A stretch of 64,000 nucleotides of DNA from an uncultured SAR116 cluster alpha proteobacterium (GTDB taxonomy: Bacteria; Pseudomonadota; Alphaproteobacteria; Puniceispirillales; Marisalimonadaceae). The first letter of the stretch is position 1. The number at the start of each line of letters is the position of its first letter. A program made the translations under genes and the position numbers. Below, one piece after another: positions 1 to 29,034 of the stretch. The stretch is taken from contig CACEFQ010000002.1 in the NCBI GenBank assembly GCA_902558885.1, positions 62,001 through 126,000 on the forward strand, written 5' to 3'. A model generated the notes under the pieces. That model made no database searches. It was not told the origin of the DNA and saw only the letters and a program-made list of their open reading frames with translations.

Positions 1-1
1 T

Positions 2-868
2 AAAGATTTTACACCTGGCGGCTCAAGTTCTGGGTCAGCTGCCGCTGTAGCATCTATGATGGCACCAGTTTGTTTTGGCACTCAAACAACTGGGTCGGTA
101 ATAAGACCTGCCGCTTACTGTGGGGTTATTGGATATAAACCATCTTATGGTGATTTTGACAAATCAGGCATTTTACCAAATTCTCCATCAATTGACACTT
201 TAGGATTGATGTCTAGGTCAGTAGAAGATATTGCACTTTTTCGATCAATCCTTCTCGAAGAAGAATTAGTCTCAATAAAAAAAATGGATTTAAGCAAAAT
301 TAAAATTGGATTTGTTAGAACACCACACTGGGACAAAACTGACGATTCTACAAAAGAATCTTTTGAGTATTTTCTTAGCTCGCTCCGTTCAGATAAATTA
401 AATGTAATTGATTTAGAAATTGATAAACTTATTTCAAAATCTGATGCACTTCATTTAGATGTAAGTGGATATGAATTTAAAAGATCAATATCTCATGAAA
501 GATTTAATTATTATGACCAATTAAGTGATCAATTGAGAAATGGTAGGCTTAATGACGGATATCAAATAACTAATAAAAATTATCAGTTAGCTCTAAAAGA
601 CTTGTCAATTTTAAAACATAAAATTGACGCTGTATTTGACGGAACTGATTTAATAATTACACCTAGTGCACCTGGCGAAGCATTAAAAGGATTAGAGTAC
701 ACAGGTTCACCAATATTTAATACAACGTGGTCTCTAAATGGAAATCCATGTATAACCTTACCCTTATTTAAGGGAAAACAGGGTTTACCAATTGGCTGCC
801 AACTGGTTGCCAGATTTGGAAATGACGATCAACTTCTAAATTATGCAAAAACCTTGTTAGAACTTTAA
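2..868 (+). CDS. Amidase signature family protein (5' end outside window)
   Basis: C-terminal 288 residues of an amidase-signature hydrolase; the frame is open to the window edge, so the first ATG at 56 is internal. The Gly/Ser-rich signature GGSSSGS lies at fragment residues 6-12 and the nucleophile motif GTQTTGSVIRP at 26-36 (Ser32). The catalytic Lys of the Ser-cisSer-Lys triad would be in the missing N-terminal part. The family hydrolyses amides such as those of aspartate/glutamate or xenobiotics; the substrate cannot be read here. It converges on dctM with a 4-nt overlap of the 3' ends. Confidence 0.9.
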   Translation, partial: KDFTPGGSSSGSAAAVASMMAPVCFGTQTTGSVIRPAAYCGVIGYKPSYGDFDKSGILPNSPSIDTLGLMSRSVEDIALFRSILLEEELVSIKKMDLSKIKIGFVRTPHWDKTDDSTKESFEYFLSSLRSDKLNVIDLEIDKLISKSDALHLDVSGYEFKRSISHERFNYYDQLSDQLRNGRLNDGYQITNKNYQLALKDLSILKHKIDAVFDGTDLIITPSAPGEALKGLEYTGSPIFNTTWSLNGNPCITLPLFKGKQGLPIGCQLVARFGNDDQLLNYAKTLLEL

Positions 869-2148
869 TTAAAATGAGAAACTACTAATAGTTCTGGAAG
901 TGTGAGTGCTAAAGCTGGGAATAGAAGTACTATAATTAATACAACTGTATCAGATATACAGAAAGGAAATGATCCCTTAATAACTGTGGTAACCGGCAAA
1001 CCAGTTACTCCACTAACAGCAAATAAGTTTAAACCAACAGGTGGGATAACACTTCCTATTTCTATACATAGTGCTGTTAAAATTCCTAAATGAATAGGAT
1101 CCACGCCAAGTGCCAACGCAACAGGAAAATATATAGGAACTGTTAGAACTAGTATTGCAACACCAGTTAAGAACATTGATAAGAATAATAAAGATCCCAT
1201 TAATGCAAAGAGAAAACCAATTCTACTTAAACCTAATTCACCTGCCCACTCTGCTATCATTTGAGGCCAACCCATATTGGCTAAATAAAATTGGAAGATA
1301 CCCACACAACCTAATAAGAAAAACACAACTGCTGTAAGGTTCATTGTCCTAATCGTTGTAGGCATGAGTTCTTTTGAAAAAGTTTTCCTTTTGAAAATTA
1401 ATCCATAAAATAGTGCATAACTAGCAGCTGCAGCACCAGCTTCGGTTGGGGTAAATAAACCACCATATAATCCACCAAGAATAATTACTGGCATAAGCAA
1501 AGCTGGTAATGCTTCTTTAAATGAAAGCCAAACTTCACATAAATCAAATTCACCTCTAGGTAACTTAATAAATAAAGATACACTAACAATAATTACTGCG
1601 TCACTCATTGCCAGCATTAGTCCAGGAATAACACCAGCAAAGAAAAGGTCCACAATAGACATTTCGGTGATCACACCAAATAATATTAATGTGATACTAG
1701 GTGGTATTAAAAGTGCTATTCCTCCTGCCGATGCTATTACACCAGCCGCCATCCACTTAGGATAACCTCTTTTTACAAGTTCTGGATATGCTATGACACT
1801 CATTGCTGCAGCCATTGCTGTAGACGAACCAGAAATAGCACCAAATAGAACTGCAGATAATAGAGTTGCATAGGCAAAACCGCCAGGCACCCAACCAACT
1901 AATGCGTCAGCAAACTTAAATAAACTGGCTACCAAACCAGTTTTTTCCATTAAAAATCCAGCAAAAATAAAAAATGGTATTGCTACTAAGGTATATTTTG
2001 TTAAGAAACTAAAAAAAGCTTCAAATAATGTAGAGTAAGTTAAGAAATCATCAAATAAAACTAGAAGAGCGGTTGCCCCTGCTAAAGCTATTCCAATAGG
2101 TGCTCCAGCAAATAAAAGTGTAAATAAAGATCCCCCAAGAGCCCACAT
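865..2148 (-). CDS. dctM: TRAP transporter large permease DctM
   Basis: Large membrane subunit (427 aa, about 12 hydrophobic segments) of a tripartite ATP-independent periplasmic transporter, which uses the sodium or proton gradient to import carboxylates delivered by the DctP binding protein. Glycine-rich membrane segments typical of the family are visible (e.g. SAGGIALLIPPS, GSVIPPVGLNLF). An AAGGA ribosome site sits 8 nt before the ATG. It is the last gene of dctP-dctQ-dctM and follows dctQ by 25 nt. The transporter lies directly downstream of a CoA-thioester catabolic cluster on the same strand and probably feeds it. Confidence 0.95.
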   Translation of the reverse strand: MWALGGSLFTLLFAGAPIGIALAGATALLVLFDDFLTYSTLFEAFFSFLTKYTLVAIPFFIFAGFLMEKTGLVASLFKFADALVGWVPGGFAYATLLSAVLFGAISGSSTAMAAAMSVIAYPELVKRGYPKWMAAGVIASAGGIALLIPPSITLILFGVITEMSIVDLFFAGVIPGLMLAMSDAVIIVSVSLFIKLPRGEFDLCEVWLSFKEALPALLMPVIILGGLYGGLFTPTEAGAAAASYALFYGLIFKRKTFSKELMPTTIRTMNLTAVVFFLLGCVGIFQFYLANMGWPQMIAEWAGELGLSRIGFLFALMGSLLFLSMFLTGVAILVLTVPIYFPVALALGVDPIHLGILTALCIEIGSVIPPVGLNLFAVSGVTGLPVTTVIKGSFPFCISDTVVLIIVLLFPALALTLPELLVVSHFN

Positions 2149-2173
2149 AATTAAATTCCTTAACTACAAAAAA

Positions 2174-2725
2174 TTAAACATCGGTTGCGGCTTCAACTTC
2201 GGCAGTGAAATGGTCACCTTTAATGTAGCTGTGAATATCTTCTATAAGTTGAAGAAAAGCAACTAAACACATTAAACCCATACCTAAAGCTAATATAAAA
2301 TAAAAAGGCCACATGAAGAAAAACAAACTCTCAGTTCTTTCCCCAATTTTGATAGAATACTCAATTGTTGAATATGCAGTAAAAGTTAATGACCCTGAAA
2401 ATAAAGATACAAAAAAAGATACAAAAATCTTGCAAAAGCCTACCGTCCTGTGAAATCCCTTAGCATTTAAAAGTTGTAAAACAGCACTCATAACTAGATG
2501 ATTTCTATTTATTTGTGTAACACAAATGTAAAAAGCGACTGAAGAAACCATCATATATATGACAGCATCTTGACCCCACTCAAAAACAACACCAAAAACA
2601 TATCTTCTAATAATTTCAGCTAAAGCAAACAGGGTAACAGCTATCATTAAAAAAGCAGAACATCTGCCTAAAATAGAAGTTATTGAGTTTTGAATTTTAT
2701 TTGAAATTTTATAAAAATTGTTCAT
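2174..2725 (-). CDS. dctQ: TRAP transporter small permease DctQ
   Basis: Small membrane subunit, 183 aa with four predicted transmembrane helices, the usual size and topology for DctQ. The segment EIIRRYVFGVVFEWGQD resembles the conserved E-x-x-x-R-Y-x-F region with downstream W. It pairs with DctM in the inner membrane. No clear ribosome site precedes the ATG, and a terminator-like hairpin lies between it and dctP, so it is probably expressed at a lower level than the binding protein. Confidence 0.9.
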   Translation of the reverse strand: MNNFYKISNKIQNSITSILGRCSAFLMIAVTLFALAEIIRRYVFGVVFEWGQDAVIYMMVSSVAFYICVTQINRNHLVMSAVLQLLNAKGFHRTVGFCKIFVSFFVSLFSGSLTFTAYSTIEYSIKIGERTESLFFFMWPFYFILALGMGLMCLVAFLQLIEDIHSYIKGDHFTAEVEAATDV

Positions 2726-2740
2726 GACTTATATCAAAAA

Positions 2741-2768
2741 AAAGGTCTGACAATAAAGCCAGACCTTT
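2741..2768 (-). terminator. Hairpin with T-tract between dctP and dctQ
   Basis: Perfect 9-bp stem (AAAGGTCTG at 2741-2749 with CAGACCTTT at 2760-2768), a 10-nt loop, and a run of T on the minus strand (A-run at 2736-2743 on plus). It sits 8 nt after the dctP stop codon. This is an intrinsic terminator or attenuator; partial read-through would give much more DctP than DctQ/DctM, as is common for binding-protein transporters. Confidence 0.75.
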
Positions 2769-2776
2769 TTCATAAT

Positions 2777-3946
2777 TTATTTTCTTGCTTTCTTTTTATA
2801 AAGGGCAGTTCCTTTACCAAACTTAGCAAAGTCTGCAGCGAAAGCTGAACAGTCAGTTTTTTCTAACTGACTTGAACCCATTGGGTTAGCAGCAACTAGG
2901 GCTTTAGCTTCAGCAGTAAACTGATCAACTAATTTGCCACCAGCAGCATCAACTTTAGTTTTGATCCATTTGTTTGTTGCGCCACCTTCTTTAGCTTGTA
3001 GAACAGAAGCTTCTTTAGGACTCATCACATAAATACCAGGGGCATTTTTGTCTGTAGTTTTATACTTATCAACTAATCTTTTATCATTACAAAAGTTAAT
3101 AGCCTTTTGGTATGGGATAAAATCATTCATGATAATATCTGTTAAAACTGCCTTTTGCTTTTTATCTAATGTAGCCCACCACTTGTTAGATGCGCCAATC
3201 CAATAATAGTCACCTACGATACCGTTAATACCAGCAACTGTGAAATACGGAGCTTGCTCTTTGGTTGCGTTAAAACCACCTAAACTAGTTAGCAAGCCAT
3301 CAATAACTCCTGTTTGAAGTGCAGGTGGCACATCACCAAAAGCCATTGTAGTTGGGTTTGCACCTAATGCTCCTAATAAAGCATTTTCAGCAGGTCCCAT
3401 ACTTCTAACTTTCTTACCAGCAAAGTCGCCAGGAACTAAAAGTCTACTTTTTACAGCACCGGCACCCATATACATACTCAAATGACCTGAACCAAAAATT
3501 GTAATACCATGCTTGTCATTCATAACTTTCTTGATTGCAGCAAATGTCTTTGTTCCATCAAGACCTTGAATAGCACCAGGTGAAGTTAACTTTCCAGCGC
3601 CAACAATAGTATTTGCATAAGGCTCAACACTAGAAGTCTTTCCAAACTGTCCAGTCATCATCTCAAGGTTACCTTTTGTCATAGCTTGTGTGCCTTTAGG
3701 AACATTATAAAGAGACTTCGCCCAATAAATTTGAACCTTACTTCCAGGAATTCTTCTTTCCACTTCCTCAGCAAAACGCATTTCTGCAATAGCTGCAGGA
3801 TGTGGCGGACCTGAATGGTCAGAAGCCCAACGCATCTTGATAGGTTTTACTTTATGTCCGTCAGCTAAAGCTAAATTAGTTCCAGCTGCGAAGGTTAGTG
3901 CAACTGCACCAGCTACACCAACTAATGATAATTTATTTAATTTCAT
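2777..3946 (-). CDS. dctP: TRAP transporter solute-binding protein DctP
   Basis: Periplasmic substrate-binding protein, 389 aa. The N-terminus is a typical signal peptide (basic MKLNK, hydrophobic core, then small residues ending in LALADG). The body follows the DctP fold, with the region GVIDGLLTSLGGF near the ligand site. A strong GGAGG site precedes the ATG by 7 nt. It heads the transporter genes and lies about 110 nt downstream of the CoA-transferase/hydratase/lyase genes. At 389 aa it is longer than the usual 320-340 aa; the ligand cannot be assigned from sequence, though a dicarboxylate fits the context. Confidence 0.93.
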   Translation of the reverse strand: MKLNKLSLVGVAGAVALTFAAGTNLALADGHKVKPIKMRWASDHSGPPHPAAIAEMRFAEEVERRIPGSKVQIYWAKSLYNVPKGTQAMTKGNLEMMTGQFGKTSSVEPYANTIVGAGKLTSPGAIQGLDGTKTFAAIKKVMNDKHGITIFGSGHLSMYMGAGAVKSRLLVPGDFAGKKVRSMGPAENALLGALGANPTTMAFGDVPPALQTGVIDGLLTSLGGFNATKEQAPYFTVAGINGIVGDYYWIGASNKWWATLDKKQKAVLTDIIMNDFIPYQKAINFCNDKRLVDKYKTTDKNAPGIYVMSPKEASVLQAKEGGATNKWIKTKVDAAGGKLVDQFTAEAKALVAANPMGSSQLEKTDCSAFAADFAKFGKGTALYKKKARK

Positions 3947-4054
3947 TAAATTTCCTCCAAATATTTAGAATCACAAACTATAACGTAATTCTTTTAAGGT
4001 AAACCTTTAATTGTAATAAATCCTATAAATTAGTTAATATGTTATGTAATTCAG

Positions 4055-5260
4055 TCAAATTATGCCTTTATGTCTAAAACTGCTTATTTGTTCAACAGTA
4101 AAACCAATCTCTTTAAGGACATTATCTGTGTCTTCACCTAGCTCTGGAGCAGTTTTATCTTGAAAATCGCTGTCTGAGACATGGACAGGTGTTTTCAATA
4201 AACTAATGTCAATCCCCCTCTTTGTTTTTAATTTTTGGATATTTTTTCTATCTTTTAAAAATGGATTTTCTAAAGACTCTTTTAAATTTAAAATAGGGGC
4301 AGCGGGGACAATACCACCAAATTCATCTAGCCATTCTGAAGTATTTTTTTTATTTAATTCTTCATCAATAATTTTAGTTATTTCATCTCTATGTTTTTGC
4401 CTAGATGAAAAGTCAGCAAACTTTGAATTTTGAATAAGATCTTCCCTTCCTAGTTTTTTACATAGAACAGGCCAAAAACTTTCCTTGTTACACATTAAGT
4501 AAATCCAACCATCTTTAGTTTTATACAATTGACAAGGAACTAAAATTGGATGAGCTGATCTATCTAATCTCTCACTTTTAAAATCAGTATTAAGTGTCCA
4601 AGCCGCCATATAGCTTTGATTAAACATAGCTGTATCAAATAAATTTACATCTACATCTCTTCCAACACCAGTTGACCTTGCAGACAATATAGCACTTACA
4701 AGTCCAAATGACATTGTCAGTCCAGACATATAATCTACAATTGACAGGCCAAATCTTGCTGGAGGTCCATTAGGTTCCCCAGTGAGTGAAAAATAACCGG
4801 CTTCAGCTTGCATTAGATAATCATATCCTGGCCAATTTTTTCTTGGCCCCTCTCTTCCGTATGCAGAACAATGTGCTGAAACAATTGATTTATTATATTG
4901 TTTAAGCTGATCATAAGTAATTCCAAGTTTTTCTGGAACATCTCCTCTTAAATTGTTCGCGACTGCGTCAGCATTCTCAACTAATTTGTGAAAAATTTTT
5001 TTTCCATCGTCTGACAATATATCTAAAGTTATACTCTTTTTATTTCTATTAAGAGCTTGAAAAAAAACACTGGAAGCAGAATTTCTATCTTCACCATCGA
5101 TAAAATAAGGACCAATTGCTCTTAAATAATCACCACTTGTACCTGCTGGTTCAACTTTAATTACCTCTGCTCCTAAATCAGCTAAATATTGAGTTCCAAA
5201 TGGACCCGCTCCATATTGTTCAAAAGCAATTACTTTGACTCCTGATAAAGGTAAATCCAT
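4055..5260 (-). CDS. Class III (CaiB/BaiF) acyl-CoA transferase
   Basis: 401-aa member of the family III CoA-transferases, which move CoA between carboxylic acids through an aspartyl-CoA anhydride intermediate. N-terminal motif LSGVKVIAFEQYGAGPFG and the motif GYDYLMQA carry the expected features, with Asp147 the predicted nucleophile. The length fits formyl-CoA, succinyl-CoA:malate or mesaconyl-CoA transferases. It is 11 nt downstream of the MaoC gene in a block that also holds a second CoA-transferase, so it may activate the imported acid or shuttle CoA between carboxyl groups. Confidence 0.93.
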   Translation of the reverse strand: MDLPLSGVKVIAFEQYGAGPFGTQYLADLGAEVIKVEPAGTSGDYLRAIGPYFIDGEDRNSASSVFFQALNRNKKSITLDILSDDGKKIFHKLVENADAVANNLRGDVPEKLGITYDQLKQYNKSIVSAHCSAYGREGPRKNWPGYDYLMQAEAGYFSLTGEPNGPPARFGLSIVDYMSGLTMSFGLVSAILSARSTGVGRDVDVNLFDTAMFNQSYMAAWTLNTDFKSERLDRSAHPILVPCQLYKTKDGWIYLMCNKESFWPVLCKKLGREDLIQNSKFADFSSRQKHRDEITKIIDEELNKKNTSEWLDEFGGIVPAAPILNLKESLENPFLKDRKNIQKLKTKRGIDISLLKTPVHVSDSDFQDKTAPELGEDTDNVLKEIGFTVEQISSFRHKGII

Positions 5261-5271
5261 GGTATTATACT

Positions 5272-5811
5272 CTAATTAGCTGCTTCATTTATAATTTCGT
5301 CAACCACACTATGTCCACGTTTGGCCACCAGGAAAGATCTTACCATATCCATTACAATAATTTTGTCTTGATTTTTACCAATGTGTCTCACCTTCACAAT
5401 ACCTTGTGTGGGTCTTGATTTCGATTCTCTTTTGTCTAAAACTTCAGTTTCAGAGTATAATGTATCACCAATAAACACAGGTGCAGGTATTTTTATTTCT
5501 TCCCATCCCAAATTAGCTATTGCTTTTTGGCTAGTGCCGCTAACACACATCCCTGTTACAAGGGCTAGAGTAAAAGCAGAATTAACCAAATATTTTCCAA
5601 ACTCAGATTTAGAGGCATAATTTGCATCAAAGTGAATTGGGTGAGTGTTCATTGTTAAATTTGTAAACCAGATGTTATCAGCCTCACTTACCGTTCTTCC
5701 AGGCCAATGCTCATAAACATCTCCCACTTTAAAATCTTCAAAATACCTACCTGGATCTTCTCTATACCTCTGGGGTCCTATTTTTTTAATTCCATAAGAA
5801 TTTTCATCCAT
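5272..5811 (-). CDS. MaoC-type enoyl-CoA hydratase/dehydratase
   Basis: 179-aa single hot-dog domain protein of the MaoC family, which adds or removes water on enoyl-CoA thioesters. The segment SEADNIWFTNLTMNTHPIHFD (residues about 43-63) is the hydratase signature, with the usual GDxNP replaced by MNTHP, as in a MaoC subfamily with Asn at the usual Asp position. It starts directly after the stop of the lyase gene (adjacent nucleotides). In this cluster it could hydrate mesaconyl- or itaconyl-CoA or dehydrate a hydroxyacyl-CoA; mesaconyl-C1-CoA hydratases are longer two-domain proteins. Confidence 0.88.
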   Translation of the reverse strand: MDENSYGIKKIGPQRYREDPGRYFEDFKVGDVYEHWPGRTVSEADNIWFTNLTMNTHPIHFDANYASKSEFGKYLVNSAFTLALVTGMCVSGTSQKAIANLGWEEIKIPAPVFIGDTLYSETEVLDKRESKSRPTQGIVKVRHIGKNQDKIIVMDMVRSFLVAKRGHSVVDEIINEAAN

Positions 5812-6624
5812 TTAATCCTCCCTTGATATAATCAGTCTTGCAACCGCTAGCACGGGTGCATCAACCATTTTACCTTGATATTTAAAAGCACCAGAACCTG
5901 CTATTTTTGATTCTTGTAAAACACCTTTTGCCCATTCCAGTTCTTTTGTAGTAGGTCTGTAAGCATCATGAATAGGTTTAATTTGATCTGGATGAATAGC
6001 AAAACGTCCCTTGAAACCCATAGTTTTGACGTGCAATGTCTCTTCTCTACATCCGTCAGGATCCCTGAAATCTAACCAGACACCGTCAAGAGCAAGGGTG
6101 TTGTATAAGGCGGCTGCATTAATTATTTTACCCCTTCCATATGCTAAACTAGCTTTACCCATATCACCACCGGTTGATGCACAATAGTCTGCTGACCCAA
6201 ATCCAATACCAGAAAACTCAATATTTGAACAATCCCAACTTTCAATTGTTGCGATGCCCCGCGGCGTTTCCACTTGAGGTAAAATGAATATATTAGTTCC
6301 AAGATCCTTTAAAAAAGTTCTGCATTCATCAGCAGACTCTATTTTAGGAATGGCAATTGAGTAAGGAAGAGAAGGTAAAGACCTTAACATTGTTATATCA
6401 TGTTGATATTCTTCAGTATCCAAAGCATTAATGCGCAATAAAAGCTTATCTGCTTGACCGTCATAATTTCTATTTGCTAGATCAGCAAAATTAGATCTTC
6501 CAATAGCTTTATTTTCATGCGCTAAACCATCTTCTAAATCGAAAATAACTTTATCAGCACCAGATCCTATAGCCTTTGGTAACCTCTCAATTTTATCCGT
6601 TGGTAAAAATAAAATACTTCTCAA
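5812..6624 (-). CDS. CitE/HpcH-family CoA ester lyase
   Basis: 270-aa TIM-barrel lyase of the citrate lyase beta/malyl-CoA/citramalyl-CoA lyase family, cleaving a beta-hydroxyacyl-CoA such as citramalyl-CoA to acetyl-CoA and pyruvate. Visible family residues: start RSILFLP, VIFDLEDGLA, LLLRINALDT, QVETPRG and GSADYCAS (metal-binding Glu and Asp), then GRFAIHPDQI and the C-terminal GKMVDAPVL. I place the start at a TTG (6622-6624) because AAGGAG lies 6 nt upstream and the family N-terminus begins exactly there; an ATG further upstream would overlap the preceding gene and add a poorly conserved Lys-rich tail. Confidence 0.9.
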   Translation of the reverse strand: MRSILFLPTDKIERLPKAIGSGADKVIFDLEDGLAHENKAIGRSNFADLANRNYDGQADKLLLRINALDTEEYQHDITMLRSLPSLPYSIAIPKIESADECRTFLKDLGTNIFILPQVETPRGIATIESWDCSNIEFSGIGFGSADYCASTGGDMGKASLAYGRGKIINAAALYNTLALDGVWLDFRDPDGCREETLHVKTMGFKGRFAIHPDQIKPIHDAYRPTTKELEWAKGVLQESKIAGSGAFKYQGKMVDAPVLAVARLIISRED

Positions 6625-6636
6625 ATCTATCTCCTT
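6625..6636 (-). promoter_or_regulatory. Ribosome binding site deciding a TTG start
   Basis: On the minus strand AAGGAG (6631-6636) is followed by the 6-nt spacer ATAGAT and TTG at 6622-6624. The perfect match and ideal spacing argue that the CitE-like lyase starts at this TTG rather than at the upstream ATG at 6681, leaving a 16-nt gap to the preceding CoA-transferase. Confidence 0.75.
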
Positions 6637-6640
6637 TTTT

Positions 6641-7795
6641 TTAAGAACTAAATTCAGCTCTAATTTTTTTTCCATGTTCATCTAATTCAGGCATTTTATT
6701 CACTTCTGGTATAAAATTGTCATGGATTGCCCCTGGACCTAATACTTTTACATTGCCGTTTTTAGTTTCAATTTCTAAAAAATTGTTTTGAGGATGGTTT
6801 TTTAGTTGTTCCATGTCAGAAATTCTTCCATAAGCAACGCTTGCTTCTTCAAGTTTTTTAATTAATTCCTCACGTTCAAAAGTAATAAATTTATCTTGAA
6901 TAATTTTTTCTGTTAATTTTCTATTGGCGACACGATCTGAGTTAGTTTTAAAGCGAGTGTCATTAACCATAGTTTCGTCATCTAATACAATTTTACATAA
7001 TTTCACCCATTCTCTATCATTTTGTATAGCAATTAAAATAGTCAAATTATCCTTACAATTATATGCGCCATAGGGAACGATTATTGGATGGGTCATGCCG
7101 TTTCTTTTAGGGATTTTTTTATTATAAACATAACCTAGATAGAAAGGGTTCATCCAATCTGCGAGCGAATTAAACATAGAGACTGATATGTGTCTACCTT
7201 TTCCACTAATACTTCTCTTGATAAGTGCTTGCAAAATTGCCTGATAAGCTGTCATTCCTGCAGATATATCACAGACTGATGGGCCAACCTTTGCTCTTCC
7301 ATCAACCCCATCTTTATCTGGAAGACCAGTTATATCAATAACACCAGTTTCAGCTTGAATTAACATATCGTAAGCTTTTTGGTTTTTATATGGGCCTTCG
7401 TCTCCAAACCCAGAAATAGAACATGTAATTAAAGATGGATATTTTTTTCTCAATTCATCAAAATTTAAACCAAGACGATCAAATGCACCTGGTGCTAAAT
7501 TTTGAATTAAAATATCAGATTTTGAAATAATTTTCTCAAAAATTTTTAAATCTTCACTGTTTTTAAGATCCAAAGCAACTGACTCTTTTCCTCTATTCAA
7601 CCAGACAAAATAAGCACTATTTCCAAGTGCGTTGCTATCATAGTTTCTGGCGAAATCACCTTCAGGTCTTTCAACTTTTATAACTCTGGCACCTGCATCT
7701 GCCAGTCTACACGATGTGTAAGGGGCTGCCACAGCTTGCTCAACTGTTACGACTAATAAACCCTCTAAATCCTTTCCGGAATTTTGTCTTTCCAT
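6641..7795 (-). CDS. Class III (CaiB/BaiF) acyl-CoA transferase
   Basis: Second family III CoA-transferase of the block, 384 aa. N-terminal LEGLLVVTVEQAVAAPYTS, then NLAPGAFDRLGL and AYDMLIQAETG with Asp143 as predicted catalytic aspartate. Its ATG shares one base with the stop of the upstream MmgE/PrpD gene (TAATG), so the two are translationally coupled. It could activate the acid with succinyl-CoA, or be the intramolecular mesaconyl-CoA C1-C4 type; sequence alone does not separate these options. Confidence 0.92.
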   Translation of the reverse strand: MERQNSGKDLEGLLVVTVEQAVAAPYTSCRLADAGARVIKVERPEGDFARNYDSNALGNSAYFVWLNRGKESVALDLKNSEDLKIFEKIISKSDILIQNLAPGAFDRLGLNFDELRKKYPSLITCSISGFGDEGPYKNQKAYDMLIQAETGVIDITGLPDKDGVDGRAKVGPSVCDISAGMTAYQAILQALIKRSISGKGRHISVSMFNSLADWMNPFYLGYVYNKKIPKRNGMTHPIIVPYGAYNCKDNLTILIAIQNDREWVKLCKIVLDDETMVNDTRFKTNSDRVANRKLTEKIIQDKFITFEREELIKKLEEASVAYGRISDMEQLKNHPQNNFLEIETKNGNVKVLGPGAIHDNFIPEVNKMPELDEHGKKIRAEFSS

Positions 7796-9114
7796 TAGCT
7801 AACCAAACAATCTACTAAAGAGGCAACTTTACTTTCAGATGATGCGTTTAACATTTTAGAAATTTCATGAGATTTATTTTTTGATAGCAATGAGGCAGAT
7901 TTGTTAACAATTTTATTTTCCAAAATATTTTGATCAATCTTGTCTGATAAATCATGTTTATTTTTTATATCTCTAGTTCCATCTTTAATAGAAATTAAAG
8001 ACTGAGTATTAGTTAATTTATCATTAGGTATAACCGTTACCTTATCCCTAACATTATTTATTTTTTCATCAAAACAAATATCATCGTTGTACGTCCCTAA
8101 GTCGGCTGTGTCTTTGCCATAAATTGACATGGCTGCTGTTAATTTATAAGAAAATTTTGATTCCAAACCAGTTTTAGGTTCTTGAATATTACACACTTTG
8201 AGCCAAGAAGGATTAGTTTCAATTGCAATCTCTTCAATTGATTCAGGATTAAAGTTGTTTTCTTGTTTTAATTCCTCAAGTGCTTCTAGGAAAGAATGTA
8301 GACCATGACAACAGGCATGAAATTTATACTTAATTTCAGGAAACAGGAAGTCTGTTCCTAAGTTTTCTACAGCTCTTGTAGGAGTTTTTTTATCCCAACC
8401 ATGAGTTTGAAAAAAACCTTGATCACACTCAATACCATCTTCTCTAGACACAAACCCAAGTTTAGATAATTTGGCAGCCTCAATACCATTTGATGCAGCC
8501 ATTCCTGCGTGATACGGTTTACCCATAGTACCAAATTGGGATTTAATTCCAGATGCTCTCGTTGAAACCAAACCAAGCGCATTTATTGTCTGGTCTTCGC
8601 TCAAATTTAGTAATTTTGATGCAACAATTGTCGCACCAAATGATCCACTTGTAGCAGTTTGATGGAACCCTGCATTATAATGAGAATAGCCTAAGATATG
8701 ACCAATTCTAGTAGAGACTTCAACTCCAGACATATAAGCAAGTAATAAATCTTCTATAGATAATTCTAATTCTTCGCCTAAGGCTAAAGCAGTAGGTAAT
8801 GCACTTGAGGTTGGATGGCCAACAAAAAGAAAGTGAGTGTCATCATAATCTAATGCATGACCTGTAGCTCCATTAGCTAAAGCCGCACCTCTTGATGAAA
8901 CGTTGTATCCAGTTGAAATCACTCGTGCTTGATTAACGCCATTTTCTTCTTTAACCATTTCAGAAACTATTTTCGAAACCGGTTCTTGTTTTGCTGCATA
9001 GGCCACTCCACACCAGTCTAGTATAGACATCTTAGCAAAAAACTTCATTTCATCATTAAAACTGTCTAGTGTACTATTAAATCCATAACTACCAAATAAT
9101 TTTGTAATCGACAT
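7795..9114 (-). CDS. MmgE/PrpD family dehydratase or decarboxylase
   Basis: 439-aa member of the family that includes 2-methylcitrate dehydratase and cis-aconitate decarboxylase. Family motifs: NGATGHALDYDDTH (residues about 80-93), GKPYHAGMAASNG and the His/Cys region KFHACCHGLHSF. Length is slightly below the 450-490 aa usual for characterised members. It lies between the FAS1-like hydratase gene and the CoA-transferase in the same operon. Genes for CoA transfer, hydration and C-C cleavage beside it fit either decarboxylation to itaconate or dehydration of a tricarboxylate; the exact reaction is not readable. Confidence 0.88.
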   Translation of the reverse strand: MSITKLFGSYGFNSTLDSFNDEMKFFAKMSILDWCGVAYAAKQEPVSKIVSEMVKEENGVNQARVISTGYNVSSRGAALANGATGHALDYDDTHFLFVGHPTSSALPTALALGEELELSIEDLLLAYMSGVEVSTRIGHILGYSHYNAGFHQTATSGSFGATIVASKLLNLSEDQTINALGLVSTRASGIKSQFGTMGKPYHAGMAASNGIEAAKLSKLGFVSREDGIECDQGFFQTHGWDKKTPTRAVENLGTDFLFPEIKYKFHACCHGLHSFLEALEELKQENNFNPESIEEIAIETNPSWLKVCNIQEPKTGLESKFSYKLTAAMSIYGKDTADLGTYNDDICFDEKINNVRDKVTVIPNDKLTNTQSLISIKDGTRDIKNKHDLSDKIDQNILENKIVNKSASLLSKNKSHEISKMLNASSESKVASLVDCLVS

Positions 9115-9134
9115 AATCTATCCTTTCCCTAAAA

Positions 9135-9992
9135 CTATTCAAAATGTGCTTCAGCTTGCATGGTCATTCCTGAACCCTTTACGGCACCCCAACAACTAAC
9201 GCTTCCATCAATGTTTTCCTTTGCGCCAATTATATAATCACTATTTGCAAAAACAGGGGCCATAACTTTATGCCTAAATGATGTTACAGTCTTGCCTTTA
9301 AGCTTTTCAGCTGCCCTTAATAAAAAAGTAGCTTGCAAGGGACCATGAACAATTAAATCAGGATAGTTCTCTTCATTTTTAGTATATGGATAGTCATAAT
9401 GTATTCTATGACCTACAAAACCAATCGCTGAATAACGGAACAATATTGTTGGATGCATAAAAATAGTTTCTGTATAGTCTGCATCTTCAGGTATTTTGTC
9501 TGATACACCAGAACCACCACCTGCTTTAGTTACATCTCTATAAACAATATTATGAAGTTCATGCAATCTTACCTCTTCATTAACTAAAAATTCATACTCT
9601 GCAGTAACAAAACAAAGCTGTCCTGTCCTACCTTCCTTTAGTTTTATGTCAGCTACCTTAGATTTTTTTATTACTTTATCACCTACTCTTAAAGGTTTTA
9701 TTACTTTGATCTGACTCCCTGCCCACATTCTTCTTGGAAGTGGGACTGGAGGCAAAAAATCACCTCTAGCTGGATGAGAATCCACACCAAGTTCGTCATT
9801 TTTTTTTAAGTCCCAACCTAACATCCAATGCAAACCAGAGGTTGCATCCTCCCCAATTTTGGGATCGCCTGGATCAATATTTAATGTTGCTCTGTACCTC
9901 TGTTCAACAATTGGTGTAAGATAATCTGTTACTGTCTCTATATTACCTAACCATTTATTTAAATGATTAATATCAAGCGCTTCATTTTCCAT
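9135..9992 (-). CDS. FAS1-like/MaoC-fold hydratase, mesaconyl-C4-CoA hydratase-like
   Basis: 285-aa double hot-dog protein with an N-terminal FAS1-type dehydratase region (LPPVPLPRRMWAGSQI) and a C-terminal part containing IVHGPLQATFLLRAAE. This architecture and size match mesaconyl-C4-CoA hydratase (Meh) of the 3-hydroxypropionate bicycle, and also itaconyl-CoA hydratase and HTD2-like proteins. It is the first gene of the minus-strand block and is 20 nt upstream of the MmgE/PrpD gene. The presence of a CitE-like lyase supports a role making citramalyl-CoA, but this is inference. Confidence 0.82.
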   Translation of the reverse strand: MENEALDINHLNKWLGNIETVTDYLTPIVEQRYRATLNIDPGDPKIGEDATSGLHWMLGWDLKKNDELGVDSHPARGDFLPPVPLPRRMWAGSQIKVIKPLRVGDKVIKKSKVADIKLKEGRTGQLCFVTAEYEFLVNEEVRLHELHNIVYRDVTKAGGGSGVSDKIPEDADYTETIFMHPTILFRYSAIGFVGHRIHYDYPYTKNEENYPDLIVHGPLQATFLLRAAEKLKGKTVTSFRHKVMAPVFANSDYIIGAKENIDGSVSCWGAVKGSGMTMQAEAHFE

Positions 9993-10089: not shown

Positions 10090-10434
10090 ATGCCTTCTTT
10101 AATTTTACATATAGATGAAACCTTAGAAAATGTTTTTGAAATTTCTGCAGTTAAAGCAATAGAAAAAAGCATAATAGATATTATTCAAGAAGAGTTAGAG
10201 GCTGAAAAAAATAACTGTCAAATTATATGGGTTAAGAGTAAAATAATTTGCTCAAATTATAAAATATTTGGTGAATTGAAGTTTAGAGATAAAGAGGCTA
10301 GAAATATTGGCAAAAGAGATAAATGTTTAAAAAGAATTGGTAAAATTTTACAAAATAAATTTAATGTTTTTATAAGACTTAGGGCATTCTCAATTCAAGA
10401 TGCATCAATAACTGCACTAGATCTTGTAAATTAA
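10090..10434 (+). CDS. Small tautomerase-superfamily-like protein
   Basis: 114-aa protein starting MPSLIL, so Pro would be N-terminal after Met removal, as in tautomerases. The stretch VKSKIICSNYKIFGE and the overall length resemble 5-carboxymethyl-2-hydroxymuconate isomerase (about 125 aa), in which the N-terminal Pro is the catalytic base. Similarity is weak and the usual Arg residues are not clear. It is divergent from the catabolic block and 37 nt upstream of a crotonase on the same strand. Treat as a tentative tautomerase. Confidence 0.5.
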   Translation: MPSLILHIDETLENVFEISAVKAIEKSIIDIIQEELEAEKNNCQIIWVKSKIICSNYKIFGELKFRDKEARNIGKRDKCLKRIGKILQNKFNVFIRLRAFSIQDASITALDLVN

Positions 10435-10471
10435 AATTGTATTTCAAGTGATAAAAATAGAAGGATCAGTA

Positions 10472-11263
10472 ATGAGTGAAAATATTGTATTAACAAGCGT
10501 AAATGAAAGAGGAATTGCTGAAGTTATTTTAAACCGTCCAGAAAGAAATAATGCATATAACGGAGATATGATTATTGAATTAATCAAAAGCTTTGAATCT
10601 TTATATAAAAATAATTCTGTAAGAATAGTGCTCATTAAAGGCAATGGAAAACATTTTCAAGCAGGAGCTGACTTACAATGGCTTAAAGAAATTGGTAAAC
10701 TTAGTCAAAAAGAAAATATAGAGGTTTCAAGAAAAACAGCTTCAGCGATACAAGGTCTTACAAAGTTCCCTAAGCCAACAATAGCTTTGATCCATGGAGG
10801 ATGCTTTGGAGGTGGAACTGGAATTGCCGCAGCAGCTGATATAGTAATAGCTAGTGAAGACGCTATTTTTTCTATTTCTGAAGCTAGATGGGGTGTAATG
10901 GCAGGAATAATAATACCTCATTTAAACGCCAGTATTGGGGTAAGAAACGTTAGGAGATATGCTCTTACATGTGAACGATTTAGTGCTAGTCAGGCCAAGG
11001 AAATGGGTTTAGTTCACCAAGTTTGTAAAACGGGTGAGCTTGAAAATGCTGTTCAACCCGTTATTGAGGACTTGTTAATGTGCGCCCCAGATGCATTGGA
11101 AGCTACAAAAAGAAGAACTTTAATTGAAAGTGGTTTAATGTTATCCGATGAAAAATTTGACGAACTTGTTTTTGAACACTCTCAAAAAAGGATGACTGAT
11201 GAAGCAAAAGAGGGTCTAAATAGTTTTCTTGAGAAAAGAACTGCATCTTGGTATCAAAATTAA
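10472..11263 (+). CDS. Enoyl-CoA hydratase/isomerase (methylglutaconyl-CoA hydratase-like)
   Basis: 263-aa crotonase. The motif FQAGADLQWLKEI resembles the GADLxWM motif of 3-methylglutaconyl-CoA hydratases, and HGGCFGGGTGIAAAADI forms the oxyanion-hole region; FSISEARWGVMAG carries the catalytic Glu region. AAGGA sits 6 nt before the ATG at 10472, which I prefer to the upstream GTG at 10448. It is co-directional with a fumarase-superfamily lyase and a thioesterase (gaps 18 and 4 nt). A role in branched-chain or related acyl-CoA degradation is likely; the substrate is uncertain. Confidence 0.88.
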   Translation: MSENIVLTSVNERGIAEVILNRPERNNAYNGDMIIELIKSFESLYKNNSVRIVLIKGNGKHFQAGADLQWLKEIGKLSQKENIEVSRKTASAIQGLTKFPKPTIALIHGGCFGGGTGIAAAADIVIASEDAIFSISEARWGVMAGIIIPHLNASIGVRNVRRYALTCERFSASQAKEMGLVHQVCKTGELENAVQPVIEDLLMCAPDALEATKRRTLIESGLMLSDEKFDELVFEHSQKRMTDEAKEGLNSFLEKRTASWYQN

Positions 11264-11281
11264 AATTATAGGAAATATAAA

Positions 11282-12637
11282 ATGCCTGCTTTAGTAACAA
11301 ATTCAAAAATATGGGGAGAAATGTTTGGCACTAAAGAAATGCATTTCTTATTTTCTGATGAGGGTACTACACAGTTATATTTAGATGTAGAAGCGGCTTT
11401 AGCAAGATCACAGTCAAAGTTGAATATTATACCAAAAGAAGCTGGGGAAAAAATAACCCAAGCAGCAAAAGTTGATATAATTGATTGGGAGAAACTTGAA
11501 AAAAGGACATCTATAGTTGGATATCCAATCCTTCCACTGGTAGAACAACTAAGTGAAAAAGTTGAAGACAACTTTGGACAATTTTGTCATTGGGGCGCTA
11601 CAACACAAGATATTATGGACACAGCAGATGTCCTTCAAATTAGAAAGGGTCTTGAATTATTATCTAAAGACCTAAAGTCAATTTCAGATGCTTTAGAAAA
11701 AATTGTTGAGCATCATATTAAGACACCTATGGCTGCTAGAACACATTTGCAACATGCTTTACCTATATCGTTTGGTTACAAGGTATCTACTTGGTTATCT
11801 GGAATAGATAGGCATCACAAAAGACTAGAAGAAATAAAGAAACGTATTTTCAATGTTTCATTTTTTGGAGCAGCAGGAACACTTGCTTCTTTAGGAGAAC
11901 ATGATGGTCTTAAGACACAGTCAACTCTTGCAAAAGAATTGGATCTGAATGTACCTGACGTTAGTTGGCATTCTATTAGAGATAATTTTTGTGAAGTAAC
12001 CGGATGGCTTGCAATGGTCGCCGCATCACTTGGTAAAATAGCTTATGATGTGATGTTAATGATGCAAACAGAAACACAAGAAGTGGCTGAACCATATCTT
12101 CACGGACGGGGCTCTTCTTCAACAATGCCTCAAAAAAGAAATCCTATTTCTTCTGAAATAATGCTGGCTTGTTCAAAACTACTAAGAGAACATCATTCTT
12201 CTATGCTAGATGCTATGGTCCTTGATCATGAAAGAGCCACAGGTCAATGGCATGTAGAATGGCATGCAATACCTAACGCCTTTTTGATTGCTTCTTCATC
12301 TTTCAACGCAGCTAAATATCTTTTAGAAGGTTTAGAAGTTTCACCTGAAAAAATGAAAGAAAATATTTATAAAACCAATGGGTTAATTGTTGCAGAGTCT
12401 GTTATGATGGCCCTTGCACCCAAGATGGGAAGACAAGTTGCACACGATTTAGTTTATGACTGTTGTAGACAGTCAATAAAAAACAACATTTCATTCATAA
12501 ATACGTTATTAAAAAACAAAAAAATTTCTAACTTTTTTAATGAGCAAGATTTGTTAAAAATTATAGATCCATCTAATTACTTAGGAGCAGCTCCTACTAT
12601 GGCACAGAGACTTTTAGATAAAAGAAAGTTACCCTAA
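11282..12637 (+). CDS. Fumarase/aspartase superfamily lyase, PcaB/adenylosuccinate lyase-like
   Basis: 451-aa lyase with the superfamily signature GSSSTMPQKRNPI (residues about 279-291), the serine-loop that abstracts a proton, plus ARTHLQHALPISFG and HWGATTQDIMDTAD regions. These look most like 3-carboxy-cis,cis-muconate cycloisomerase (PcaB) and related non-purine lyases. PcaB would act after the protocatechuate 3,4-dioxygenase encoded at 27688-28996, but this gene sits with a crotonase and thioesterase, so another C4-dicarboxylate-forming elimination is equally possible. Confidence 0.82.
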   Translation: MPALVTNSKIWGEMFGTKEMHFLFSDEGTTQLYLDVEAALARSQSKLNIIPKEAGEKITQAAKVDIIDWEKLEKRTSIVGYPILPLVEQLSEKVEDNFGQFCHWGATTQDIMDTADVLQIRKGLELLSKDLKSISDALEKIVEHHIKTPMAARTHLQHALPISFGYKVSTWLSGIDRHHKRLEEIKKRIFNVSFFGAAGTLASLGEHDGLKTQSTLAKELDLNVPDVSWHSIRDNFCEVTGWLAMVAASLGKIAYDVMLMMQTETQEVAEPYLHGRGSSSTMPQKRNPISSEIMLACSKLLREHHSSMLDAMVLDHERATGQWHVEWHAIPNAFLIASSSFNAAKYLLEGLEVSPEKMKENIYKTNGLIVAESVMMALAPKMGRQVAHDLVYDCCRQSIKNNISFINTLLKNKKISNFFNEQDLLKIIDPSNYLGAAPTMAQRLLDKRKLP

Positions 12638-12641
12638 TATA

Positions 12642-13058
12642 ATGCAACAATTGATGACAAAAGAAAGCCTTGATAAATTTTTAAATAAAGAATTTCCTCA
12701 AGTAAGCAAAAACTTCAAAATATTAAATGTAAGTGATCAGTCTTTTTCAATGCTAATGTATATTACTGAGGAACATTTGAGACCAGGGGCAACAGTTTCA
12801 GGCCCTACAATGTTTTTATTAGCAGATGTAACTTTTTATTTAGCAACTTTAAGTATTATAGGACCTAAAAGTCTTACTGTTACAACTAATTGTTCAATAA
12901 ATTTTTTAAGAAAACCGAACGAGAAAAACTTGACTAGTAAAGCCAGAATTTTAAAATTAGGAAAAACTTTAAGTGTAGGCGATGTTTTAATTTATTCAGA
13001 AGATATTAAAGAGCCTGTTGCCCAAGCTTCACTTACTTATTCTATTCCACAAAAATAA
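12642..13058 (+). CDS. PaaI-type hot-dog thioesterase
   Basis: 138-aa hot-dog fold protein. The segment GATVSGPTMFLLADVTFYLA matches the PaaI-like active-site region (helix start with Gly and a downstream Asp), and the strand TTNCSINFLRKP is typical. It would hydrolyse an acyl-CoA produced by the neighbouring enzymes. It starts 4 nt after the lyase stop; an alternative ATG at 12654 is possible since no good ribosome site marks either. The 3' end converges on fghA with only 2 nt between them. Confidence 0.8.
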   Translation: MQQLMTKESLDKFLNKEFPQVSKNFKILNVSDQSFSMLMYITEEHLRPGATVSGPTMFLLADVTFYLATLSIIGPKSLTVTTNCSINFLRKPNEKNLTSKARILKLGKTLSVGDVLIYSEDIKEPVAQASLTYSIPQK

Positions 13059-20814: not shown

Positions 20815-20839
20815 TATTTTAATCAAAGGTCTTTAAAAA

Positions 20840-21358: not shown

Positions 21359-21371
21359 AAAGGGTAAAAGT

Positions 21372-22844: not shown

Positions 22845-22863
22845 TTTTTTTAGTTGAAGTAAA

Positions 22864-28996: not shown

Positions 28997-29034
28997 GCTT
29001 TTACCTAAGTTTTGAGAAATGTATTTTATTAATT

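What the first reader, a model, noticed from the sequence alone, without database searches (positions are those of the whole stretch)
865..9992. Candidate C5-dicarboxylate (itaconate/mesaconate/citramalate) uptake and CoA-cleavage module
A minus-strand block joins a TRAP transporter to two class III CoA-transferases, a MaoC hydratase, a FAS1-like hydratase resembling mesaconyl-C4-CoA hydratase, a CitE-like lyase and an MmgE/PrpD protein. The enzyme types match those of itaconate degradation (CoA-transferase, itaconyl-CoA hydratase, citramalyl-CoA lyase) and of the second cycle of the 3-hydroxypropionate bicycle in Chloroflexus (mcl, mch, mct, meh). The added PrpD protein (family of cis-aconitate decarboxylase) and the transporter give a self-contained route from an external or internally made C5 acid to acetyl-CoA and pyruvate. 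The combination is the best candidate for an undescribed system here.
Basis: partly seen in the sequence, partly recalled or inferred. Interest (0 to 1): 0.75.

Follow-up and report, generated by a model that had tools for sequence, protein, structure and literature searches.

The report
Marine itaconate-type acid breakdown cluster
A common ocean bacterium carries one conserved gene cluster that probably takes up and breaks down small branched acids such as itaconate; its core resembles a known pathway, but it merges two normally separate versions of it and has an uptake system of its own.

Summary
The nine genes are real and lie as described. The genome is a SAR116 alphaproteobacterium. The block is kept in 20 of 20 same-genus loci fetched, and continues beyond the window into an amidase, a second MmgE/PrpD protein and an acyl-CoA dehydrogenase in the 19 loci long enough. 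The core (Ich-type hydratase, Ict-clade CoA-transferase, CitE-type lyase, MmgE/PrpD, TRAP) works like the published Pseudomonas itaconate/methylsuccinate cluster, so the system is not undescribed. Differences: it adds a RipB-like MaoC hydratase, a second CoA-transferase and a FadE3-like dehydrogenase related to another, functionally unnamed cluster type; in the loci examined outside the genus the two hydratase types never share a cluster. Neither PrpD scores as methylsuccinate isomerase or groups with cis-aconitate decarboxylase. The type-A methylsuccinyl-CoA dehydrogenase is not in the block, and the TRAP binding protein is not IctP-like. Most likely: import of branched C5 dicarboxylates, CoA transfer, hydration to citramalyl-CoA, cleavage to acetyl-CoA and pyruvate. 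The 3-hydroxypropionate-bicycle and decarboxylase readings are not supported. New variant of a known kind; substrate unproven.

The parts
9135..9992 (-). Ich-type (FAS1-like/MaoC_dehydrat_N) hydratase, first gene of the operon; likely itaconyl-/mesaconyl-C4-CoA hydratase
   Evidence: Pfam FAS1_DH_region; best PDB 8khg/8huc itaconyl-CoA hydratase, 173 and 171 bits; of 31 relatives' surroundings outside the genus, 19 hold a type-A CoA-transferase, 19 a type-A Mcd, 11 a CitE, 10 a PrpD
7795..9114 (-). PrpD1, MmgE/PrpD protein; likely isomerase of a free dicarboxylate (inferred); not cis-aconitate decarboxylase and not in the beta/gamma methylsuccinate isomerase clade
   Evidence: 165 bits against 735-835 for clade members in a profile of that clade; active-site residues
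6641..7795 (-). CaiB1, class III CoA-transferase of the Ict (type A) clade
   Evidence: 21-row clade, 100/100; its orthologue lies beside an Ich paralogue in two related genomes that lack it here
5812..6681 (-). CitE-like lyase, likely (S)-citramalyl-CoA lyase; start codon uncertain (overlaps CaiB1 by 41 bp)
   Evidence: HpcH_HpaI; RipC_Ccl model 162 bits, below its cut-off of 375; PDB 9nzb, 8khl; divergent, weakly placed near type-A lyases
5272..5811 (-). RipB-like MaoC hydratase, second hydratase
   Evidence: RipB_Ich model 232 bits, cut-off 340; 58-65% identical to MaoC proteins of the named plasmid clusters; relatives replace Ich in two clusters, though these two lie outside its 16-row clade
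4055..5260 (-). CaiB2, class III CoA-transferase of the type-B clade
   Evidence: 12-row clade, 100/100
2777..3946 (-). TRAP solute-binding protein, DctP family, substrate unknown
   Evidence: DctP 77 bits; not an IctP orthologue; no match at E<=1e-40 in 396 other proteobacterial genomes, at most four first-look candidates scored per genome
2174..2725 (-). TRAP small permease (DctQ)
865..2148 (-). TRAP large permease (DctM)
   Evidence: TIGR00786 over cut-off
1..868 (+). Amidase (in-window part; gene begins outside, C2:61594), kept between TRAP and PrpD2; its 3' end overlaps the TRAP-M end by 4 bp
   Evidence: PF01425 118 bits; 19 of 20 genus loci, the other contig ending first

Best explanation
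It is a catabolic operon for branched C5 dicarboxylates of the itaconate/mesaconate/methylsuccinate group in SAR116 bacteria. The TRAP system imports an acid (substrate inferred). CaiB1, and probably CaiB2, move CoA from succinyl-CoA onto it. Ich, and probably the RipB-like MaoC, hydrate itaconyl-CoA or mesaconyl-C4-CoA to (S)-citramalyl-CoA. The CitE-like lyase splits that into acetyl-CoA and pyruvate. PrpD1 and PrpD2 interconvert isomers of the free acid; the FadE3-like dehydrogenase desaturates saturated CoA esters; the amidase may release the acid from an amide. Shown here: gene identity, clade membership, conserved co-occurrence. Inferred: every reaction, and above all the substrates of the TRAP, CaiB2, both PrpDs, the dehydrogenase and the amidase.
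For: Ich matches solved itaconyl-CoA hydratase best. CaiB1 lies in a 100/100 clade of 21 CoA-transferases, nearly all from stretches with an Ich or RipB-like MaoC (contents). The lyase's best solved relatives are acyl-CoA lyases; its best NCBIfam model is RipC_Ccl, below cut-off. The block is kept in 20 of 20 genus loci. CaiB1 changed place: in two related genomes it lies next to an Ich paralogue (order HIBADH-Ich2-CaiB1-Gor), while in the window's genome and AG-893-L10 that slot lacks it and it lies in the operon, which ties it to Ich-type hydratases. RipB-like MaoC proteins stand in for Ich in two clusters that hold a type-A dehydrogenase and a type-A CoA-transferase: a Thermus plasmid (with lyase and class I fumarase) and G155 (no lyase seen). 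A Pseudosulfitobacter plasmid pairs a type-A-clade CoA-transferase with type-B MaoC and dehydrogenase. Other SAR116 families carry PrpD1-Ich-CitE-CaiB1 (L085, L087), CaiB-CitE-Ich-Mcd (L086) or Mcd-PrpD1-CaiB1 (L195). In Pseudomonas the same kind of enzyme set degrades itaconate, mesaconate, citramalate and methylsuccinate (PMC9875883, abstract and passages; PMC12290011, abstract, two sections, passages).
Against: RipB_Ich and RipC_Ccl models score below their equivalog cut-offs (232/340, 162/375). The lyase is divergent and weakly placed. The two MaoC stand-ins lie outside the window MaoC's own clade. Neither PrpD is close to the methylsuccinate isomerase clade, and PrpD1 relatives are not always linked: of 16 stretches fetched around them, 5 hold Mcd + CaiB or a fuller type-B-like set, 4 a partial or weak set, 7 none, including three of the closest (L193, L194, L196). 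The type-A methylsuccinyl-CoA dehydrogenase is not in the block: found elsewhere in 5 of 7 genus genomes searched, absent from the window's own 76%-complete assembly and from G013. The SBP is not IctP-like. No biochemical data.
Confidence: 0.6

Rival explanations
1. Two parallel routes share one lyase and one transporter: Ich + CaiB1 + PrpD1 handle itaconate/mesaconate, while MaoC + CaiB2 + FadE3-like dehydrogenase + PrpD2 + amidase handle a different substituted succinate, possibly arriving as an amide.
For: CaiB2, MaoC and the dehydrogenase belong to type-B clades that recur without Ich: of 20 type-B stretches, 19 hold the MaoC, 13 a type-B-like dehydrogenase, 12 a CaiB2-type protein, 8 a PrpD, 6 an amidase, 6 TRAP genes, 1 an Ich (weak superfamily matches counted in). 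MaoC and CaiB2 are kept even where CaiB1 is not in the operon. The window MaoC groups with type-B proteins, apart from the RipB-named one.
Against: Only one lyase gene in the block; MaoC relatives replace Ich in two clusters with type-A genes, and one type-B cluster uses a type-A-clade CoA-transferase (L123), which suggests similar substrates.
Confidence: 0.27
2. A C1/C4 linkage: MaoC acts on mesaconyl-C1-CoA to give beta-methylmalyl-CoA and the lyase yields glyoxylate + propionyl-CoA, so that with Ich the module links acetyl-CoA + pyruvate to glyoxylate + propionyl-CoA, as in the second 3-hydroxypropionate cycle or a citramalate-type anaplerotic cycle.
For: Best solved relative of MaoC is a beta-methylmalyl-CoA dehydratase (8hgn, 122 bits). 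No crotonyl-CoA carboxylase/reductase over cut-off in 11 genomes, and only partial ~300-aa matches to the isocitrate lyase model in the genus, so a glyoxylate source could be useful.
Against: Mesaconyl-CoA isomerase model 71/30 bits against 725, and 2-methylfumaryl-CoA hydratase model 70 against 560; the RipB model scores far higher for MaoC; HpcH_HpaI relatives elsewhere in the genus were not resolved into functions.
Confidence: 0.06
3. Ordinary broad-specificity CaiB/CitE/MaoC genes for an unrelated acid; the itaconate resemblance reflects superfamily similarity only.
For: No enzyme of the block reaches an equivalog cut-off, and the lyase is divergent.
Against: CaiB1 clade and Ich identity; recurrent Ich + CaiB-A + Mcd/CitE/PrpD context in relatives.
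Confidence: 0.07

Closest known systems
Pseudomonas aeruginosa PA0878-PA0886 / Cupriavidus necator itaconate-methylsuccinate cluster (Ich, Mcd, MmgE/PrpD, Ict, Ccl; IctPQM in P. aeruginosa)
   Same: Ich-type hydratase, Ict-clade CoA-transferase, CitE-type lyase, an MmgE/PrpD gene and a TRAP transporter in one block
   Different: No type-A methylsuccinyl-CoA dehydrogenase in the block; PrpDs outside the isomerase clade; extra RipB-like MaoC, second CoA-transferase, FadE3-like dehydrogenase, second PrpD and amidase; TRAP binding protein only distantly related to IctP (28 bits)
RipABC-type itaconate pathway (RipB/RipC models of NCBIfam)
   Same: A single-domain MaoC hydratase and a CitE-like lyase as neighbours; both have RipB/RipC as best NCBIfam models
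   Different: Both below equivalog cut-offs; CoA-transferases are class III CaiB, not the class of RipA (RipA class recalled, not from a call)
Type-B clusters of Azospirillum (L126), Caballeronia (L181), Variovorax (L128), Aminobacter (L127) and unnamed proteobacteria (L170, L172, L173, L174/L175, L176, L177, L178); Pseudosulfitobacter (L123) is a mixed case
   Same: CaiB2-clade CoA-transferase and RipB-like MaoC in all of these but L123, type-B dehydrogenase in all but L173; in some also PrpD, amidase or TRAP
   Different: No Ich in the cluster (one lies about 24 kb from the MaoC of L174); L123 has a type-A-clade CoA-transferase; no functional name was found for them here (searched)
Second cycle of the Chloroflexus 3-hydroxypropionate bicycle
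   Same: CoA-transferase family III, MaoC and FAS1-like hydratases, CitE-type lyase (bicycle enzymes recalled)
   Different: No intramolecular mesaconyl-CoA transferase match; hydratase is single-domain

Membership tests
Pseudomonas-type itaconate/methylsuccinate cluster | Ich-type (FAS1-like) itaconyl-CoA hydratase | tested here: met
   8khg/8huc 173 and 171 bits over residues 13-284
Pseudomonas-type itaconate/methylsuccinate cluster | Class III CoA-transferase of the Ict clade | tested here: met
   CaiB1 inside the 21-row clade of cluster CoA-transferases, 100/100; clade named by cluster context, the assayed Ict itself was not in the tree
Pseudomonas-type itaconate/methylsuccinate cluster | (S)-citramalyl-CoA lyase (Ccl) | tested here: inconclusive
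   Right superfamily and best PDB relatives; RipC_Ccl 162/375 bits; weak tree placement
Pseudomonas-type itaconate/methylsuccinate cluster | MmgE/PrpD of the methylsuccinate isomerase clade | tested here: not met
   PrpD1 165, PrpD2 251 bits; six clade members 735-835 leave-one-out; Asp where the clade has Glu, loop one residue longer; assayed PA0881 itself was not fetched
Pseudomonas-type itaconate/methylsuccinate cluster | Adjacent type-A methylsuccinyl-CoA dehydrogenase (Mcd) | tested here: not met
   Block dehydrogenase is in the type-B clade; type-A Mcd unlinked in 5 of 7 genus genomes
IctPQM transporter | IctP/DctP-like binding pocket | tested here: not met
   28 bits to 9ht3; in the alignment to DctP (9dsy) the Arg is kept but the Asn pair named in PMC12599236 is replaced; a structure model was too poor to use
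RipB / RipC equivalogs | NCBIfam curated cut-offs | tested here: not met
   232/340 and 162/375 bits
cis-Aconitate decarboxylase | closest characterised relatives and clade | tested here: not met
   PrpD1: IRG1 of B. subtilis 149, IDS epimerase 139, CAD 78 bits; tree
3-hydroxypropionate bicycle second cycle | mesaconyl-CoA C1-C4 transferase and mesaconyl-C1-CoA hydratase | tested here: not met
   TIGR04253 71 and 30 of 725 bits; NF041625 70 of 560 bits
3-hydroxypropionate bicycle second cycle | Meh mesaconyl-C4-CoA hydratase orthology | not tested
   no Meh reference sequence was fetched
Any of the above | enzyme activity and substrate | not testable with these tools
   needs purified enzymes and growth tests

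The most novel reading that the evidence does not exclude
The SAR116 block is the meeting point of two independently evolved succinate-derivative pathways. Its second half belongs to a widespread, uncharacterised 'type-B' catabolic system (MmgE/PrpD isomerases, class III CoA-transferase, FadE3-like dehydrogenase, RipB-like hydratase, CitE lyase, transporter, often an amidase) for a substituted succinate that reaches the cell as an amide: a marine carbon source not yet named.
Probability: 0.2. Interest if true: 0.65.

Novelty: new variant of a known kind. Interest (0 to 1): 0.42.

Why it matters
SAR116 is among the most abundant heterotrophs of the surface ocean (PMC8547437, start of abstract in the search listing, and passages), and no held paper names itaconate and SAR116 together. 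A cluster kept across the genus implies a steady supply of branched C5 dicarboxylates or close relatives in seawater. Since the genus matches the isocitrate lyase model only with partial ~300-aa proteins, detoxifying an isocitrate lyase inhibitor is a poor reason to keep it, which favours nutrition (inference). The merged layout and the type-B clusters point to untested functions in the MmgE/PrpD family, most of whose members are uncharacterised (PMC12290011).

Tried and rejected
Rejected: PrpD as cis-aconitate decarboxylase; a bicycle-type module; the block as a plain copy of the Pseudomonas cluster. Led nowhere: a structure model of the TRAP binding protein from 11 SAR116 sequences (mean pLDDT 54.7), not used; the second Ich paralogue (C1:26099-26938) as part of a second full cluster (only a distant CoA-transferase about 7 kb away in its 20-kb surroundings); placing the lyase in type A or B (long branch). 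The PrpD tree joins PrpD1 with two long PDB branches at 93/90; I treat only 'not in the isomerase clade' as settled. L030 shows the operon folded back on itself with a broken CaiB1; I take it for an amplification or assembly chimera. Limits: loci for counts were taken by best hit and contig length, so frequencies outside the genus are not unbiased; the 38 loci and the 20 come largely from the same genomes; gene labels are best BLAST hits (over 50-70 bits where a floor was set) and include superfamily matches; genome searches score at most 4 or 8 first-look candidates per genome. In one search, 'typeB' holds 20 stretches, one of them (L175) next to L174 and without a MaoC. One search also labelled a fragment at the edge of L153 (G191), some 9 kb from an Ich cluster, as 47% identical to the TRAP binding protein; it did not appear at the 60-bit floor and was not followed.
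Full report
Observation. The block 865-9992 holds nine minus-strand genes with the families claimed. In order of transcription: Ich-type hydratase (9135-9992), MmgE/PrpD 'PrpD1' (7795-9114), class III CoA-transferase CaiB1 (6641-7795), CitE-like lyase (5812-6681), MaoC hydratase (5272-5811), CaiB2 (4055-5260), TRAP binding protein (2777-3946), small permease (2174-2725), large permease (865-2148). Gaps are -41 to 108 bp. The nearest named genomes are SAR116 single-cell and metagenome assemblies. The window is part of a 1.65-Mb, 76%-complete assembly.

Extent. Beyond base 1 lie an opposite-strand amidase (C2:61594-62868) and, on the minus strand again, a second MmgE/PrpD gene (C2:60105-61487) followed by an acyl-CoA dehydrogenase (C2:58911-60083). 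Of 36 other same-genus genomes searched, 32 have the Ich gene at 91-99% identity; three more have only the 51-54% paralogue and one has none (those four assemblies are 60-79% complete). From 20 of the 32 I fetched the surroundings: all nine genes in the same order in 20 of 20, and amidase, PrpD2 and dehydrogenase in 19, the twentieth contig ending first. A second view through 38 loci with an Ich match of at least 79% (L009-L046) gives Ich, PrpD1, CitE, MaoC and CaiB2 in 38 of 38, TRAP in 37 and CaiB1 in 36 (one of these, L030, is rearranged with a broken CaiB1).

What the core is. Ich matches itaconyl-CoA hydratase structures (8khg, 8huc) at 173 and 171 bits. CaiB1 lies in a clade (21 rows, 100/100) made of CoA-transferases mostly from stretches with an Ich gene, or with a RipB-like MaoC in its place, often with a methylsuccinyl-CoA-dehydrogenase-like 'Mcd', a CitE lyase or a PrpD. 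The lyase's best solved relatives are acyl-CoA lyases 9nzb and 8khl (129 bits each), but it is divergent, and the RipC_Ccl model gives 162 bits against a cut-off of 375. In Pseudomonas, Ich, Ict and Ccl turn itaconate into acetyl-CoA and pyruvate; the MmgE/PrpD protein is an (S)-(R)-methylsuccinate isomerase and the acyl-CoA dehydrogenase a methylsuccinyl-C4-CoA dehydrogenase (PMC12290011, abstract, introduction, distribution section and passages; PMC9875883, abstract and passages), and a TRAP system imports the acid (PMC12599236, passages and one section). The window block therefore works like a known system.

Where it departs. (a) It contains a second hydratase, a RipB-like MaoC (232 bits, cut-off 340). 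In one sample of 397 proteobacterial genomes, 93 have an Ich match and 12 a MaoC match at E<=1e-45; seven, including the window's own, have both, and in the six others they lie on different contigs or at least 24 kb apart (positions). Among fetched surroundings of up to about 20 kb, 0 of 31 Ich loci outside the genus hold such a MaoC, and 1 of 20 type-B stretches holds an Ich. In one search's 20 type-B stretches: MaoC 19, CitE 16, type-B-like dehydrogenase 13, CaiB2-like 12, PrpD 8, amidase 6, TRAP 6 (weak matches counted in, such as a 31% dehydrogenase and a 26% CoA-transferase). A Pseudosulfitobacter plasmid (L123) mixes type-B MaoC and dehydrogenase with a type-A-clade CoA-transferase. The dehydrogenase's nearest structure is FadE3, 4iv6 (413 bits, next 267). 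(c) Neither PrpD reaches the isomerase clade: a profile of six beta/gamma isomerase-type proteins gives its own members 735-835 bits when left out, PrpD2 251 and PrpD1 165. These six are assigned by cluster context, not by assay: four of the six loci show both Mcd and CaiB beside Ich and PrpD, L120 shows Mcd only, L156 neither. PrpD1 and PrpD2 keep the conserved His and Lys residues but have Asp where that clade has Glu, and a loop one residue longer, so that the Tyr position is uncertain. PrpD1 forms a clade with proteins beside Ich genes in other alphaproteobacteria (L085, L087, L160), and is nearer to IRG1 of B. subtilis and IDS epimerase than to cis-aconitate decarboxylase (149, 139, 78 bits). 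But its relatives are not always linked: of 16 further stretches fetched around PrpD1 relatives, 5 hold Mcd + CaiB (L195) or a type-B-like set (L199, L204, L207, L208), 4 a partial or weak set, and 7 none, among them the 48%-, 42%- and 41%-identical L193, L196 and L194. (d) A type-A Mcd exists elsewhere in 5 of 7 genus genomes, not in the window's assembly or G013, and not in the block. (e) The TRAP binding protein has no match at E<=1e-40 in 396 other genomes, with at most four candidates scored per genome. In the alignment to DctP the ligand-binding Arg is kept, but the two Asn that IctP uses are not (the alignment to IctP itself was not printed, so the mapping goes through DctP and its residue spacing).

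A natural rearrangement. Two divergent SAR116 genomes (L042, L043) lack CaiB1 in the operon. Both carry it (62% identity) beside the second Ich paralogue, in the order HIBADH-Ich2-CaiB1-Gor, a slot where the window's genome and AG-893-L10 have Ich2 directly followed by Gor. CaiB1 thus changed places between two Ich genes, which ties it to Ich-type hydratases. In those two genomes CaiB2 alone stays beside both hydratases.

MaoC as an Ich equivalent. On a Thermus thermophilus plasmid a MaoC of this family sits with a type-A Mcd, a type-A CoA-transferase, a CitE lyase, class I fumarase subunits and a TAXI-type TRAP transporter. In G155 one sits with a type-A CoA-transferase and Mcd, no lyase seen; neither stretch has an Ich. 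Both lie outside the window MaoC's 16-row clade, the G155 one with a RipB-named protein. With that reserve, the simplest reading is that the window MaoC hydrates the same kind of CoA ester: two hydratases for one step, or for the itaconyl and mesaconyl esters. That it serves another substituted succinate is the main rival.

Physiology. No crotonyl-CoA carboxylase/reductase is over cut-off in 11 genomes. Six of 7 genus genomes match the isocitrate lyase model, but only in part (~300-aa proteins, 44-47 bits, over the Pfam cut-off of 26), which I read as the wider PEP-mutase/PrpB superfamily (inference). PMC8547437 reports the glyoxylate shunt only in some SAR116 genera (passage). Class I fumarase, which turns mesaconate into (S)-citramalate (PMC12290011, introduction), is present but unlinked in 6 of 7 genus genomes. 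In two genomes of another SAR116 family a second class I fumarase and succinate-dehydrogenase-like subunits lie a few kb from PrpD1-Ich-CitE-CaiB1, which fits feeding methylsuccinate or mesaconate into the same lyase.

Verdict. Observation confirmed and extended; interpretation partly right. The finding is a new variant of the known itaconate/methylsuccinate pathway, merged with part of a functionally unnamed type-B cluster. Its substrate is inferred. Searches for itaconate with SAR116 (0 papers) and for itaconate degradation with marine and TRAP transporter (0 papers) found nothing in the held library, which lacks most subscription journals; PMC12262181, a SAR116 ecophysiology paper, has no occurrence of itaconate, glyoxylate or TRAP in its main text. 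On checking this report against the calls I mended counts and added the unlinked PrpD1 relatives and the MaoC clade reserve; the odds stand.

Noticed in passing
window 10448-13058 (+): Divergent crotonase / aspartase-fumarase-superfamily (PcaB-like, below cut-offs) / hotdog thioesterase genes; the crotonase and the PcaB-like gene stand beside the cluster in 20 of 20 genus loci.
   Followed up: partly
window 10090-10434 (+): 114-aa ORF between the two operons, found in 20 of 20 genus loci fetched but not seen in L042/L043; no Pfam or NCBIfam match.
   Followed up: partly
window 19819-24243 (+): A third MmgE/PrpD gene follows what looks like a tripartite tricarboxylate transporter set (binding protein 27% to one on an Aminobacter plasmid, the rest by eye); a separate uptake unit.
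   Followed up: no
window 27688-30204 (-): Genes that by eye look like protocatechuate 3,4-dioxygenase subunits and 4-hydroxybenzoate hydroxylase; the PcaB-like protein at 11282-12637 may belong with them (recalled motifs).
   Followed up: no
L170 11205-12797, L174 10144-11553, L178 16484-17854: Type-B clusters carry a second MmgE/PrpD protein that has lost a conserved catalytic His and one Lys (Phe and Leu instead), beside or near an intact one: possibly a degenerate partner subunit.
   Followed up: partly
L087 14686-18865 and L085: Succinate-dehydrogenase-like subunits and a class I fumarase beside PrpD1-Ich-CitE-CaiB1 in another SAR116 family.
   Followed up: partly
L123 16297-19403: The mixed cluster on a Pseudosulfitobacter plasmid is followed by a cobalamin-dependent protein, an acyl-CoA mutase and MeaB, which could extend the acid range.
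   Followed up: no
L030 12199-19977: Operon folded back on itself with a broken CaiB1 in one single-cell assembly; probably an amplification chimera.
   Followed up: partly
L199, L204, L207, L208: Unnamed alphaproteobacterial genomes carry a related cluster with PrpD, two different MaoC proteins, an acyl-CoA dehydrogenase, CaiB and CitE; a third variant of the same logic.
   Followed up: partly
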